Below, in pieces: positions 4,919 through 10,944 of a stretch of 40,839 nt of DNA. The stretch comes from a virus, in the IMG/VR virus record IMGVR_UViG_3300005511_000870, positions 1 to 40,839 of that record. One strand, 5' to 3'. Every line of letters begins with the position of its first letter. The stretch's first letter is position 1. A model generated the notes under the pieces. It saw only the letters and a program-made list of their open reading frames with translations, did no database searches and was not told where the DNA came from. The translations under genes were made by a program, and so were the position numbers.

Positions 4919-5069
4919 CGCGCACCTCCTTCAGCACGCGATCGCGCTCGGCCTGCAGGGCCGGCAGCACGTTGAGGCGGACCAGGTCGTCGGTCGGGGC
5001 GGCTTCGCGCGCGCGGGAGACGGCCCAGTCTAGGGCGGCCAGGCGGTCGTTCAGGTGGATGTCGCTCAT
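4911..5069 (-). CDS. Small helical early protein
   Basis: 52 residues from the ATG at 5069 (MSDIHLNDRLAALDW). The open frame extends upstream, but this start leaves the plus-strand gene at 5099 untouched. It appears to be a single amphipathic helical unit ending LKEVRGG. Unknown function. It restarts the early minus-strand operon after the plus-strand insertion, and overlaps the next gene by eight bases. Confidence 0.6.
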   Translation of the reverse strand: MSDIHLNDRLAALDWAVSRAREAAPTDDLVRLNVLPALQAERDRVLKEVRGG

Positions 5070-5098
5070 GGCAGAATGCGCTCCATCAAGGAGGGGGT

Positions 5099-5785
5099 AT
5101 GGCAATCGAGATATGTCCGCTCGCAATGGACTGGGGAAGCTGGGCTGATTGGGCAGCTGTCTTGGTAGCTTTGGCCGGCACTGGCGCCGTCGTGTTGCTG
5201 GGTCTTCGAACCAATGCGCTGGGCAAGGCGGCCAACGAAATTGCTCAGGAAGCGAAGAGGGCGGCGGACGCTGCAGACAATGAACGTGCGCGCATTGCGA
5301 AGGCTGAGCGCGAGCTCCTTCTGATCTACCTGTCTGGCGAAATCGCCGGTGCGATAAGTCGACTTCGTAGACTCAAAATAGACGTCAACGACGACGCGTT
5401 TTGTCAGGAGGTTGCGGTGGATGAAGTGGCCGCACGGAAGATGCTCAGTCGCCTCGACGGGGAAGTATTCCCCCGGACAAACGCATGCCTTAACCGCATG
5501 CACCTCGTTGGAAACCCGGAAGCTGCGAAGTTGGTTCGCGTTATGGGGACGTTGCGCGCGTTGGCTGACACGATTCCACCGGCTGGCATATGGTCTGACG
5601 AGATCGGGAGAATGCACTTGGTTGCGCTGCGAGGACTGCTCAACGTATTGCTTCCTGATCTCGAACAAGTTGGGGATGCATGCAGACGGGCTGTGGCTGA
5701 TTCCGGCATTCCTATTGGCGGAATTTCGGAGAAAGAATTTCGTGATGCCTTGAGCATGGCCGCCGCAGGTGACGCGATTCGGTAG
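5099..5785 (+). CDS. Membrane-anchored coiled-coil protein, candidate moron
   Basis: 228 residues from the ATG at 5099, preceded by a strong AAGGAGG four bases upstream. A transmembrane helix at about residues 17-36 (WAAVLVALAGTGAVVLLGL) is followed by a charged helical stretch (40-75, probable coiled coil, with an alanine-rich EAKRAADAADNERARIAKAE) and a helical C-terminal domain. It sits on the plus strand between two early genes read the other way (5069 and 5803), leaving only 30 and 17 spare bases, which is typical of a later insertion. Base composition is lower in GC than the neighbours. Topology resembles the membrane protein at 1-492, although I see no clear sequence relationship. Family not recognised; possibly a lysogenic-conversion or exclusion protein. 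Confidence 0.75.
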   Translation: MAIEICPLAMDWGSWADWAAVLVALAGTGAVVLLGLRTNALGKAANEIAQEAKRAADAADNERARIAKAERELLLIYLSGEIAGAISRLRRLKIDVNDDAFCQEVAVDEVAARKMLSRLDGEVFPRTNACLNRMHLVGNPEAAKLVRVMGTLRALADTIPPAGIWSDEIGRMHLVALRGLLNVLLPDLEQVGDACRRAVADSGIPIGGISEKEFRDALSMAAAGDAIR

Positions 5786-5802
5786 GTGAGTGGTAAGTTC
5801 CT

Positions 5803-6060
5803 TCACGCCGCTATCCCCATCGCGGCCAGGTCGATCTCGTCGACCTTGTCGCGCAGCTGGTGGCAGGCCCGGCGCAGGCGCTCGGCGATGAAGGCCGGCG
5901 TCTCGGTGGCGGCGAAGGTCGTCTCGCGCATGTGCAGCGCGCCGCGGTGATCGCGCCGGAACAGGCGCCAGATGATGAAGTCGCCATCGGTGGTGGCGAA
6001 CCGGCCCCAGGAGACGCTGCCTTTGCGCTTCGGCGTCCGGCGGGTGGCATGTCGCCTCAT
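5803..6060 (-). CDS. Small basic early protein
   Basis: 85 residues from the ATG at 6060, which overlaps the upstream stop (ATGA). A basic N-terminus (MRRHATRRTPKRKGS) precedes a short beta region (WGRFATTDGDFIIWRLF) and a helical end (IAERLRRACHQLRDKVDEIDLAA). Unknown function; the basic start might contact nucleic acid. Last gene of the left operon before the plus-strand insertion at 5099-5785. Confidence 0.65.
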   Translation of the reverse strand: MRRHATRRTPKRKGSVSWGRFATTDGDFIIWRLFRRDHRGALHMRETTFAATETPAFIAERLRRACHQLRDKVDEIDLAAMGIAA

Positions 6061-7702: not shown

Positions 7703-8025
7703 GCGGCCTCTCCCAGCTCGGCCAACGCGCGCTGCAGGTCGTACTGCAGCTGCTCAAGGGCGCGCGCGCTGTGCTGACGGCCGGCGATGCCCTGGCCGCG
7801 AAGAACCGCCTCGGCGCGGCGCAGGAGGCCGGGCAGGGCAGAGCAGCGCGCCAGGAAGCGGGCGTTGGCGGCGTTGCCGCCGGGATTGAGGTGGGGCGAC
7901 CGGCATTCAGCGACGAGGATGTCGCCGTTGGCTGACCAGATGGTGGTGGTGCCGGGGCCCGAGTAGAACGGGCCGGGGGTGGGGCTGGCCGGCTGAGCGT
8001 CGGCCGAGCGGGTTGCCAGATCCAT
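7699..8025 (-). CDS. First gene of the left early operon (unknown)
   Basis: 108 residues from the ATG at 8025, with GGAG eight bases upstream and about 50 bases downstream of the predicted PL start. A proline-rich N-terminus (PASPTPGPFYSGPG), a small beta region (TTIWSANGDILVAEC) and a helical end (LEQLQYDLQRALAELGEAA) are seen. Small proteins of this design (WSANGD and NARFLARCS segments) are common in early regions of temperate phages of this host group, from general recall. Its transcription should be controlled directly by the paired operators at 8088-8121. Confidence 0.75.
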   Translation of the reverse strand: MDLATRSADAQPASPTPGPFYSGPGTTTIWSANGDILVAECRSPHLNPGGNAANARFLARCSALPGLLRRAEAVLRGQGIAGRQHSARALEQLQYDLQRALAELGEAA

Positions 8026-8083
8026 TGCCGTCTCCGCGCCACCTGCCGGACGGGATTCCGGGGTTCTTCGTGGCGACGGAGAT

Positions 8084-8112
8084 AGTAAAGCAACGCTTGA
8101 GCTGAAAGTCAA
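8084..8112 (-). promoter_or_regulatory. Predicted left early promoter (PL)
   Basis: On the minus strand, TTGACT (8112-8107), a 17-base spacer and TTTACT (8089-8084). The -35 overlaps one operator (8111-8121) and the -10/spacer overlaps the other (8088-8098). The same arrangement recurs at the right promoter, which makes it more credible. Reads into the gene starting at 8025. Confidence 0.65.
8088..8098. promoter_or_regulatory. Left operator, AAGC-N3-GCTT
   Basis: AAGCAACGCTT, palindromic outer arms of four bases with a three-base centre. One of five such sites, all in the two early control regions. Overlaps the -10 side of the predicted PL promoter. Probable binding site of the CI-like repressor encoded at 9006-9686. 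Confidence 0.7.
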
Positions 8113-8121
8113 GCTATGCTT
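8111..8121. promoter_or_regulatory. Left operator, AAGC-N3-GCTT
   Basis: AAGCTATGCTT. Its centre is 23 bases from the centre of the site at 8088-8098, the same spacing as the pair at 9725-9758. Overlaps the -35 of the predicted PL promoter. Probable repressor operator. Confidence 0.7.
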
Positions 8122-8144
8122 TAGGCCGGCTGGGGTGCTACGGG

Positions 8145-8996
8145 CTAATCGTCCGCCTTGACCACCAAGTTGACAGTTCGGCCGTCGTTGGACGAGGAGA
8201 CCATCGAAACTCGCTTACCGGCTCTCAAAGCTTCCGCGATGCAGGGATTGTCGGCAGCGCTCATGGAAACGACGAGCCTTTGGAAGAAGAGCATGCTTCG
8301 CATGTGGCCCACGATGCGATCAGGGGGGATCAGCTTCAGAGAGACAACTGCCCCAGGCACGCAGTGCTTGGAAATGAAAGCTTTGTCCGCCCACTGAATG
8401 ATGGTCGACGGTTTCGGTGTCGGATTTTCACGTGCAATCGGGGCAGCACCAGGTTGGAATGCTTCTCGATCTAGCAGCCGCTTGTAGTACGTGGAGCTCC
8501 GCTTCGTTTTTCCAGAATGCAAGCTCAGTGCCAGATGCAACGTCGTCGCGTCGTTCAATGCGTGATGTCCGGCGCCAACAGCAATTCCGAAATGTTCGCG
8601 AACAGTTTCAAGCTTCTTGTTGTACATCATTGGCCAGGGCCATTGCCTATAGCTACAGCGCCAGTCAATACGGTGAAGATCAGGGTATACGCTGCCAATC
8701 ATGCGGCGATCGAATGATGCGTTATGCGCGATCACGGTGTCGGCAGGTGATAGAAAACTGCGCAGCCCATCTAAGTCAAAAGATGCGCCGCGCAGAGATT
8801 CAAGCGTCCTGCCATGGACCGCAAATGCACCTGGGCTAATGGATACGGTTGGCTCCTGTTCGCCGTACCACTTCCCTTCCATTGCTGAGATGCCGCTGTC
8901 TTCAACAGATACAAGGATCGCCCCAATACTGATGGGCTGATCGGCCTCTAATAGACCAGTGCTCTCGCAATCAACGATTGCGACGATCCTTGGCAT
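8145..8996 (-). CDS. DEDDh-type 3'-5' exonuclease, cotranscribed with the repressor
   Basis: 283 residues from the ATG at 8996, nine bases after the repressor stop. The exonuclease domain (residues 1-160) has ExoI D9/E11 (VDCESTGL), ExoII D96 (AHNASFD) and ExoIII H144-D149 (HHALND), all DnaQ/RNase T-superfamily residues. Residues 170-283 form an extra domain I do not recognise (WADKAFISKHCVPGAVVSLKLI and onward, ending VNLVVKADD). GC is lower than in the flanking early genes. Because it follows cI directly on the same strand, it is probably made in the lysogen. That suggests degradation of nucleic acid from invaders or another conversion role rather than a lytic function; this is inference. 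Its stop lies just before the PL promoter. Confidence 0.85.
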   Translation of the reverse strand: MPRIVAIVDCESTGLLEADQPISIGAILVSVEDSGISAMEGKWYGEQEPTVSISPGAFAVHGRTLESLRGASFDLDGLRSFLSPADTVIAHNASFDRRMIGSVYPDLHRIDWRCSYRQWPWPMMYNKKLETVREHFGIAVGAGHHALNDATTLHLALSLHSGKTKRSSTYYKRLLDREAFQPGAAPIARENPTPKPSTIIQWADKAFISKHCVPGAVVSLKLIPPDRIVGHMRSMLFFQRLVVSMSAADNPCIAEALRAGKRVSMVSSSNDGRTVNLVVKADD

Positions 8997-9005
8997 GAGA
9001 GGCTC

Positions 9006-9686
9006 CTAGTTGAAACGATCGATCCTATTTCTCAGGTAGACCTTGCCGCCGACTATCGCGCCTTGCGGCAACGGGAACGCTGGATACAGCGCCGTGTTGG
9101 CACTCACCACGTAGATGGAATCGCCGCGGTCCTGAAGGCCCTTCACTTGCTGCCCGTTTCCTGTGTTGATCAGGTAAATGCCGTCGCCATCGAAGGCGTT
9201 GACTCCGGTGTCGACTATCAGCGACTCACCCGGCTGGATCACAGGGATCATGGAGTCACCACGGCCGGTGACCAGAATGAGGCGCCCAGGAGGCGGAACA
9301 AAGCCCACAACCGACCGAATGTAGGCCGGAGTGAAGTCCATCGAGCGAACAACCTCAGGGTAGTCCTCGTTTACGCGCCCATCCCCCATATCCGCTTCTC
9401 CGTCCAGTAGCTGCACCCGGACAGAGTCGCGCTTTGCACTCTCAATCTCTGCGACAGCTGAGACGGTTGAGGCCTCCGAGGGGACGTCCATCCCGAAATG
9501 GGACAGGGGCCGCTTGGTGAGCTCAGCCAGACGGGGAATCTTGCGCTTGTCGATCTTGCCGGTCCTCAGCCAACCGGACACGGCTTGTTCGGTCACGCCG
9601 AAAGCGTCGGCGATCTCCTTCTGTGTTTTGCCGGAGCCCTCGATGGCCGACCGGACCGCTGTTGCCATGTCGTGGTTGTCAAGCAT
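9006..9686 (-). CDS. CI-like repressor, helix-turn-helix plus S24 peptidase domain
   Basis: 226 residues from the ATG at 9686; an alternative ATG at 9668 (MATAVRSAI) would leave the operator at 9681-9691 outside the gene. Residues 19-40 are a helix-turn-helix (TQKEIADAFGVTEQAVSGWL). The C-terminal half is a LexA/CI-type S24 domain with S145 (GRGDSM) and K182 (QQVKGL) as the Ser-Lys dyad. It maintains lysogeny, and RecA-stimulated self-cleavage is expected to release the early promoters. No clear Ala-Gly cleavage pair was pinned down in the linker (about 70-115). The gene is divergent from the Cro-like gene, with three operators in between. Confidence 0.93.
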   Translation of the reverse strand: MLDNHDMATAVRSAIEGSGKTQKEIADAFGVTEQAVSGWLRTGKIDKRKIPRLAELTKRPLSHFGMDVPSEASTVSAVAEIESAKRDSVRVQLLDGEADMGDGRVNEDYPEVVRSMDFTPAYIRSVVGFVPPPGRLILVTGRGDSMIPVIQPGESLIVDTGVNAFDGDGIYLINTGNGQQVKGLQDRGDSIYVVSANTALYPAFPLPQGAIVGGKVYLRNRIDRFN

Positions 9687-9691
9687 CGCTT
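9681..9691. promoter_or_regulatory. Operator at the repressor start, AAGC-N3-GCTT
   Basis: AAGCATCGCTT overlapping the ATG of the repressor gene at 9684-9686 (read on the minus strand). Identical to the site at 9725-9735. Its position suggests repressor autoregulation, like OR3 of lambda, or it may block translation or elongation at its own start. Confidence 0.65.
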
Positions 9692-9724
9692 TATTGTCCG
9701 ATGCCCACGAGCCGCAATGTAAGA

Positions 9725-9735
9725 AAGCATCGCTT
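9725..9735. promoter_or_regulatory. Right operator, AAGC-N3-GCTT
   Basis: AAGCATCGCTT overlapping the first bases of the -35 (TTGACT, 9734-9739) of the predicted right promoter. Forms a pair with 9748-9758, centres 23 bases apart, inside a larger near-perfect inverted repeat. Confidence 0.7.
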
Positions 9736-9764
9736 GACTACTGACTCAAGCGATGCTTTAGAAT
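9734..9764 (+). promoter_or_regulatory. Predicted right early promoter (PR)
   Basis: TTGACT (9734-9739), then TTTAGA (9757-9762) at 17 bases or TAGAAT (9759-9764) at 19 bases. A start site six to eight bases later falls at or next to the ATG at 9772, so the Cro-like transcript may have almost no leader. Both operators at 9725-9758 overlap it. Confidence 0.6.
9748..9758. promoter_or_regulatory. Right operator, AAGC-N3-GCTT
   Basis: AAGCGATGCTT, located in the spacer and -10 of the predicted right promoter. Same 23-base pair spacing as at the left promoter, so occupation by the repressor should block RNA polymerase. Confidence 0.7.
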
Positions 9765-9771
9765 GGGTGCC

Positions 9772-10005
9772 ATGACTCCCATCTCTCGCGCGATCCAGAA
9801 CATAGAAGGCGGACAAGCAGCACTTGCCCGTCGACTCGCAGTTTCGCCCCAAGCGGTGAACCAGTGGGTCAACGGCCATCGGCCGGTCCCGCCGAAGCAC
9901 GCCATCGCGATTGAGGCTGCGACGGGCGTCACCCGCCACGAGCTGCGGCCCGACGTCTTCGGCGCCGCGTCGGCCGAAGGGCAGGGGGTGGCCGATGCTG
10001 CCTGA
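9772..10005 (+). CDS. YdaS/Cro-like DNA-binding protein
   Basis: 77 residues from the ATG at 9772. A helix-turn-helix spans about residues 13-37 (GGQAALARRLAVSPQAVNQWVNG), followed by the RPVPPKHAIAIEAATGVTRHELRPDVF pattern typical of YdaS_antitoxin/Cro-like proteins in proteobacterial prophages. It is divergent from cI and is the first gene of the right early transcript, so it should act as Cro and lower repressor synthesis during lytic growth. No good Shine-Dalgarno is present, and the predicted transcript start is very close to the ATG. Confidence 0.88.
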   Translation: MTPISRAIQNIEGGQAALARRLAVSPQAVNQWVNGHRPVPPKHAIAIEAATGVTRHELRPDVFGAASAEGQGVADAA

Positions 10006-10494: not shown

Positions 10495-10944
10495 ATGAAC
10501 ATCCTCGACGCCGCGCACAAGACCGTGAAGAGCTACCCCGGTGGTAGCGAATCGCTGGCACCCCGCATCGGCATGTCCGCCGCGGTGCTGCGGAACAAGG
10601 TCAATCCGAACAACGACACGCACCACCTGACCTTGGCCGAGGCCAGCGAGATCATGGGGGTGTCGCACGACGACCGAATCCTGCACGCGCTGGCGGCCGA
10701 GCACGGCTACACGCTGCAGCCGATGGAGGCGAGCACCAGCGGCACCGTCATGGGCGCGATGCTCGACCACGGCGCATCGCAGGGTGCGTTCGCCCAGGCG
10801 ATCCACGAAGCGCTCCGCGACGGTCTGATCACCGAGAACGAGATGCGCGCGATCAGCGCCGCTGGCGCCTCGCAGATGAGTGCAGTGGTGGGTCTGCTGG
10901 CGCGCCTGCGCTCGGTCACCGGTGTGCCGGGGGTGGGGGCGTGA
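10495..10944 (+). CDS. CII-family phage regulator (CP76-like)
   Basis: 149 residues from the ATG at 10495. The sequence (MNILDAAHKTVKSYPGGSESLAPRIGMSAAVLRNKVNPNNDTHHL split over residues 1-45, then LTLAEASEIMGVSHDD) matches the phage regulatory CII family (Phage_CP76). The N-terminal half holds a helix-turn-helix and the C-terminal half is helical and probably oligomerises. Such proteins influence the choice between lysis and lysogeny by activating repressor or integrase promoters. It starts the long run of overlapping replication genes; its stop overlaps a GTG at 10941. Confidence 0.85.
   Translation: MNILDAAHKTVKSYPGGSESLAPRIGMSAAVLRNKVNPNNDTHHLTLAEASEIMGVSHDDRILHALAAEHGYTLQPMEASTSGTVMGAMLDHGASQGAFAQAIHEALRDGLITENEMRAISAAGASQMSAVVGLLARLRSVTGVPGVGA

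What the first reader, a model, noticed from the sequence alone, without database searches (positions are those of the whole stretch)
8145..9686. DnaQ-type exonuclease in the repressor operon
A complete DEDDh exonuclease with an unknown 110-residue C-terminal domain follows cI by nine bases and ends before PL, so it should be expressed in the lysogen. Lower GC suggests later acquisition. A lysogen-expressed nuclease is a natural candidate for excluding other phages.
Basis: partly seen in the sequence, partly recalled or inferred. Interest (0 to 1): 0.6.

Follow-up and report, generated by a model that had tools for sequence, protein, structure and literature searches.

The report
Exonuclease cargo gene beside phage repressor
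A dormant bacterial virus carries a DNA-trimming enzyme gene in the one place that stays switched on while it sleeps, a slot where related viruses each carry a different protective-looking gene, so the enzyme probably guards the host cell against rival viruses, though this has not been tested.

Summary
A complete DEDDh (DnaQ-type) exonuclease gene of 283 residues starts 9 bases after the cI stop and ends just before the PL operators. I identified the operators as AAGCNNNGCTT: five copies in the window (0.54 expected), two at OL and three at OR. The gene is the lowest-GC stretch of the phage.

The comparison with relatives is the main result. In 75 related prophages with the same CI dimerisation domain, the cI-OL interval is a one-gene cargo slot. 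Across all 76 loci it holds about 25 unrelated protein families, mostly predicted lipoproteins, secreted or membrane proteins. None of the relatives has the exonuclease. This is the position of lambda rexAB, 434 hex and bstA.

The gene is therefore very likely lysogen-expressed cargo and not a replication factor. A 47% homologue sits directly behind an unrelated repressor in another phage. More distant DEDDh exonucleases also sit in repressor operons of other prophages, often with transmembrane segments. Another homologue is a probable integron cassette.

Exclusion of other phages is the best-supported role but is untested. The C-terminal ~100 residues stay unassigned: no homologues and no confident fold. 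I file it as a new variant of a known kind (repressor-operon moron). Interest is moderate.

The parts
8145..8996 (-). DEDDh (DnaQ-type) 3'-5' exonuclease, 283 aa; residues 1-187 exonuclease domain, about 185-283 orphan C-terminal region
8148..8444 (-). C-terminal region (residues 185-283), no family, no homologue found, low-confidence model
9006..9686 (-). cI repressor, HTH plus S24 peptidase-type dimerisation domain (226 aa)
8086..8123 (.). OL: two operators AAGCNNNGCTT 23 bases apart, overlapping PL (TTGACT-17-TTTACT on the - strand)
9681..9758 (.). OR: three operators AAGCNNNGCTT between cI and cro
9763..10005 (+). cro-position YdaS/Cro-like HTH protein
10495..10944 (+). CII-like activator (Phage_CP76)

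Best explanation
The gene is a cargo ('moron') gene in the rexAB-type slot of a lambdoid prophage. It is read on the cI transcript from PRM and is probably translationally coupled to cI (inferred from the Shine-Dalgarno overlapping the cI stop). It makes an active DEDDh 3'-5' exonuclease in the uninduced lysogen (active site shown, activity inferred). Its most likely role is to attack 3' DNA ends of superinfecting phages or of their replication intermediates, protecting the lysogen. The C-terminal region would act as a targeting or recognition module (inferred: homologues keep the nuclease and swap this part, several for membrane segments). Shown: gene, active-site residues, fold, operators, slot variability, recurrence behind other repressors. 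Inferred: co-transcription, nuclease activity, target, exclusion phenotype.
For: Position between the cI stop and OL/PL, with five operators identified. The slot exists in 73 of 76 loci with the same CI C-terminal domain (the window, 73 virus records, 2 genomes) and holds 25 unrelated families; 67 of 73 slot proteins have a signal-like or membrane segment, and cargo GC is 0.58 against 0.64 for the loci. In the 25 loci with these operators, the pair 23 bases apart lies downstream of the cargo. None of the relatives carries the exonuclease. A homologue (47% over 176 aa) follows an unrelated HTH repressor with a 4-base overlap and a divergent YdaS-like gene in L117. DEDDh exonucleases also directly follow HTH repressors in prophages L118/L119 and L123, and lie in the repressor operon of L121. 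Another homologue is an integron-type cassette flanked by attC-like repeats (L053), so the gene behaves as mobile cargo. Experimentally shown lysogen-expressed exclusion genes sit in the same place: bstA and rexAB (PMC8585504), 434 hex on the PRM mRNA (PMC3564112), RexABpp (PMC12894663).
Against: There is no transcription or infection data. This protein lacks the lipoprotein or membrane signature of most slot cargo and of the homologues behind other repressors. It does not match a characterised defence family: the PADLOC PDC-S48 hit covers only the generic exonuclease part and is shared by all DEDDh proteins tested. Two chromosomal homologues are not in recognisable defence islands.
Confidence: 0.55

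Rival explanations
1. Lysogen-stabilising factor. The exonuclease trims single-stranded 3' ends, limits RecA filaments and so lowers spontaneous SOS induction of the S24-type CI, doing by another route what 434 Hex does.
For: CI carries the S24 domain with the conserved GDSM serine and a conserved lysine. 434 Hex, encoded at the same position, blocks RecA-stimulated repressor cleavage and also excludes P22 (PMC3564112). ExoX is among the closest folds.
Against: The homologue in L117 and the distant ones in L118 and L123 follow repressors in which no S24 domain was found. Other homologues have no repressor beside them, including an integron-type cassette. None of the 75 relatives with the same CI C-terminal domain has it.
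Confidence: 0.18
2. General host-fitness or DNA-repair cargo, for example proofreading or degradation of damaged or short DNA, unrelated to other phages.
For: The fold is that of Pol III epsilon, ExoX and TREX-like repair enzymes. A homologue is a solitary chromosomal gene (L052).
Against: The same place in lambda-like phages is known for exclusion genes, and sister slots hold envelope proteins of the exclusion type. The gene is rare and scattered: 2 of 395 family genomes carry a homologue of 39% identity or more, at unrelated sites.
Confidence: 0.17
3. Lytic replication or recombination factor that happens to lie next to cI.
For: The best PHROG match is 'DNA polymerase exonuclease subunit'; many lytic phages carry DEDDh exonucleases.
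Against: The gene is upstream of PL and not in either early operon. It is absent from all 75 relatives. Its GC is the lowest of the phage.
Confidence: 0.07
4. Silent passenger gene with no selected function.
For: Composition still differs from the phage (GC3 0.60 against 0.74-0.93 for most other genes). The C-terminal region is an orphan.
Against: The frame is intact over 283 codons, all catalytic residues are kept and the ribosome site is well placed.
Confidence: 0.03

Closest known systems
Lambda rexAB, 434 hex, BTP1 bstA (genes on the cI transcript, between cI and OL/PL or N)
   Same: Identical genomic position, same-strand and short-gap arrangement behind cI; cargo of a mosaic hotspot (PMC8585504, PMC3564112).
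   Different: No sequence relation known to me: those are not DEDDh nucleases, and exclusion is shown for them but not here.
DEDDh exonucleases: E. coli Pol III epsilon (DnaQ), ExoX, TREX1/TREX2
   Same: Fold and complete DEDDh active site.
   Different: Orphan C-terminal region; not a replicase subunit by curated profile; encoded in a prophage immunity region.
PADLOC candidate PDC-S48
   Same: N-terminal DEDDh domain (3e-8 over residues 3-181).
   Different: The 411-residue model is matched only in its exonuclease part, so this is a generic domain match.
diDNases of genomic islands (PMC11706625)
   Same: DEDD-family nucleases on mobile elements and prophages with a proposed immune role.
   Different: A different DEDD subfamily (NrnC homologues) in Actinomycetes and Clostridia; repressor linkage is not described in the passages read.
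Superinfection-exclusion lipoproteins such as Ltp of TP-J34 (PMC3952083)
   Same: Lipoproteins involved in superinfection exclusion; they resemble in type most cargo of the sister slots.
   Different: The window's cargo is a predicted cytosolic nuclease.

Membership tests
DEDDh exonuclease (RNase_T / DnaQ-like) | Motifs with D, E, D, H and D catalytic residues | tested here: met
   D9, E11, D96, H144, D149 present; D9, E11, H144, D149 invariant in 22 homologues, D96 at least 90%
DEDDh exonuclease (RNase_T / DnaQ-like) | Family profile above curated cut-off | tested here: met
   PF00929 30.4 bits, cut-off 24
DEDDh exonuclease (RNase_T / DnaQ-like) | RNase H-like exonuclease fold | tested here: met
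   Confident AF2 model of residues 1-187; Foldseek 1.6e-10 to Pol III epsilon
DEDDh exonuclease (RNase_T / DnaQ-like) | 3'-5' exonuclease activity | not testable with these tools
   needs purified protein
Pol III epsilon subunit (dnaQ equivalog) | TIGR01406 / PRK05711 score above cut-off | tested here: not met
   22.3 bits against 222.7, and 23.7 against 196
Repressor-operon cargo (rexAB/hex/bstA position) | Same strand as cI, between the cI stop and OL/PL | tested here: met
Repressor-operon cargo (rexAB/hex/bstA position) | Content variable among related phages | tested here: met
   25 families in 73 loci
Repressor-operon cargo (rexAB/hex/bstA position) | Co-transcribed with cI in the lysogen | not testable with these tools
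   needs RNA-seq or RT-PCR
Superinfection exclusion / anti-phage defence system | Reduces plating of other phages | not testable with these tools
   needs infection assays
PDC-S48 (PADLOC candidate) | Match along the whole 411-residue model | tested here: not met
   only profile positions 4-187 matched

The most novel reading that the evidence does not exclude
Temperate phages of unrelated kinds have repeatedly placed a TREX-like DEDDh exonuclease behind their repressor gene, with an exchangeable anchoring or targeting appendage (a membrane segment in L117, L118/L119, L121 and L123; an orphan domain here). This would be an unrecognised class of lysogen-encoded exclusion nuclease that trims incoming DNA at its entry or replication site.
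Probability: 0.3. Interest if true: 0.7.

Novelty: new variant of a known kind. Interest (0 to 1): 0.5.

Why it matters
The place behind cI is one of the few that stay active in a dormant prophage, and its known occupants (rexAB, hex, bstA) are exclusion systems. The census gives a defined one-gene slot with about 25 cargo families in one prophage group, each a testable exclusion candidate in an ordinary lysogen. A DEDDh exonuclease as slot cargo, with homologues behind other repressors, points to DNA-end trimming as a possible lysogen defence, which I did not find described.

Tried and rejected
Replication factor: rejected on position, absence from relatives and composition. PDC-S48 membership: the match is only the generic exonuclease part, and every DEDDh protein I tested hits it. 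Low GC as a special mark of the exonuclease: rejected, since the slot genes of relatives are low too. C-terminal domain: searches of plasmids and phages with E up to 10 gave only chance matches; NCBIfam gave none; AF2 alone gave pLDDT 48.8, so no fold search was run on it. Close relatives of the whole protein in viral contigs: none on the first scan; an alignment of three homologues was needed to reach L117. Order-wide search at E<=1e-25: nothing, and without a positive control it shows nothing. L120 has an exonuclease with an N-terminal membrane segment, but it lies beside the terminase genes and no repressor is next to it, so it is not counted. DEDDh-like genes in the genomes behind L054-L056 lack usual motif residues and are not close relatives. 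Searches with L123 and L117 proteins returned only themselves.

Full report
WHAT IS THERE. The window is a 40.8 kb virus record of a lambdoid siphophage. Its terminase gene is about 72% identical in DNA to those of Stenotrophomonas phages, and it has an integrase, cI, a cro-position YdaS-like gene, a CII-like gene, an O-like gene and a Q-like gene. ORF 8145-8996 on the minus strand encodes 283 residues and begins 9 bases after the cI stop; its AGGAG overlaps the cI TAG, which suggests translational coupling (inference). Residues 1-187 are a DEDDh exonuclease by profile, by a complete catalytic set and by fold. The remaining ~100 residues are an orphan: no family, no homologue even at E 10 in phages or plasmids, no confident model.

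OPERATORS. AAGCNNNGCTT occurs exactly five times (expected 0.54; no shuffle of 100 reached five), twice at 8088/8111 and three times at 9681/9725/9748. These are OL and OR. On the minus strand the OL pair, 23 bases apart, overlaps TTGACT-17-TTTACT (my reading of the sequence), the PL core, and the same layout recurs in 24 relatives. The exonuclease therefore lies inside the immunity region, upstream of PL, and can be reached only by the cI transcript or by a promoter of its own. None is evident: the simple promoter scan found no sigma-70-like site in 7900-10000, but it found none for PL, PR or PRM either, so that scan carries no weight.

THE SLOT. CI homologues were collected from viral contigs and genomes. 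The S24 domain is very conserved while the N-terminal DNA-binding domain is exchanged. Taking 76 loci (the window, 73 virus records, 2 genomes), 73 have an ORF starting within about 120 bases of the cI stop. These fall into 25 unrelated clusters; 67 of 73 carry a signal-like or membrane segment by a simple hydropathy rule, 29 with a lipobox; 69 of 73 have lower GC than their locus. Cargo includes YecR-like lipoproteins, LprI-type proteins, PDZ membrane proteins and zinc-ribbon membrane proteins. The window is the only locus with an exonuclease. Many relatives show a hairpin and T-run between the cargo gene and OL; the window does not, so how its cI-exonuclease message ends is open.

RECURRENCE BEHIND OTHER REPRESSORS. 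In L117 (a virus contig) a homologue with 47% identity over residues 5-180 starts four bases inside the end of an HTH repressor gene that is not S24-type, with a divergent YdaS-like gene. In L118/L119 a DEDDh exonuclease lies 43 bases behind an HTH repressor, and in L123 62 bases behind one, followed by a small membrane protein and the integrase; in L121 it lies further down the repressor operon. These are 27-33% identical to the window protein, so they show a shared habit and not orthology. A hydropathy comparison gave membrane-like segments outside the exonuclease core in L117, L118/L119, L121 and L123, and otherwise only in L120, among all homologues examined. Fisher's test on hand-counted distinct viral loci, counting the window as a repressor-linked case without such a segment, gave p about 6e-4. 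It is post hoc and the sequences are related, so this is a lead only. The window's own protein lacks such a segment.

OTHER HOMOLOGUES. Of 395 genomes of the host-type family, five had a match at E 1e-4 and two matched at 39% identity or more: one a solitary chromosomal gene (49% over residues 2-180), the other between 60-base attC-like repeats in a cassette array, most likely an integron cassette. The gene thus moves as cargo.

INTERPRETATION. Position, slot behaviour, mobility and intact active site together make lysogen-expressed cargo very likely (my estimate about 0.9 for that part alone). Among possible roles, exclusion of other phages is favoured: the occupants of this place studied so far exclude phages (rexAB and bstA, PMC8585504; RexABpp, PMC12894663; hex, PMC3564112), and most sister cargo are envelope proteins like known exclusion lipoproteins (compare PMC3952083, abstract). 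The best rival is a Hex-like stabiliser acting on RecA-driven CI cleavage. It is weakened because homologues follow repressors without a detected S24 domain or have no repressor beside them. No experiment bears on either, and the compound statement gets 0.55.

NOVELTY. The slot type is known; PMC8585504 cites earlier work on the cI-N interval as a mosaic hotspot. A DEDDh exonuclease as its occupant, with similar enzymes behind other repressors, was not found in the literature searched. I file it as a new variant of a known kind.

Noticed in passing
window 9006-9686 and L003-L019, L059-L116: CI is modular: the S24 domain is nearly invariant while the DNA-binding domain is swapped between relatives, and the gene behind cI is swapped as well.
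   Followed up: partly
window 8097-8144 compared with L004-L009, L061-L073, L116: Many relatives show a G+C-rich hairpin with a T-run between the cargo gene and OL; the window has none, so its cI-exonuclease message may run into the PL operon.
   Followed up: partly
L053:7885-8857: A 39%-identical exonuclease gene sits between attC-like 60-base repeats in a cassette array, probably a chromosomal integron.
   Followed up: partly
window 5066-5806 and 843-2030: Two further low-GC leftward ORFs (57% and 58%): the first without family, the second a PHROG 3364 protein with a weak HATPase-like match.
   Followed up: no
L056:4489-7303: A DEDDh-like gene lacking usual motif residues lies behind a gene that reads like an AAA/OLD-type ATPase; possible defence pair in a Xanthomonadaceae-type genome.
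   Followed up: no
L093 (slot after cI): A sister slot with an apparently cytosolic cargo of two ORFs, unlike the usual lipoproteins.
   Followed up: no
L092, L101, L005-L008 (slot after cI): Slot cargo of LprI (lysozyme-inhibitor-like) and YecR-like lipoprotein families; exclusion candidates.
   Followed up: partly
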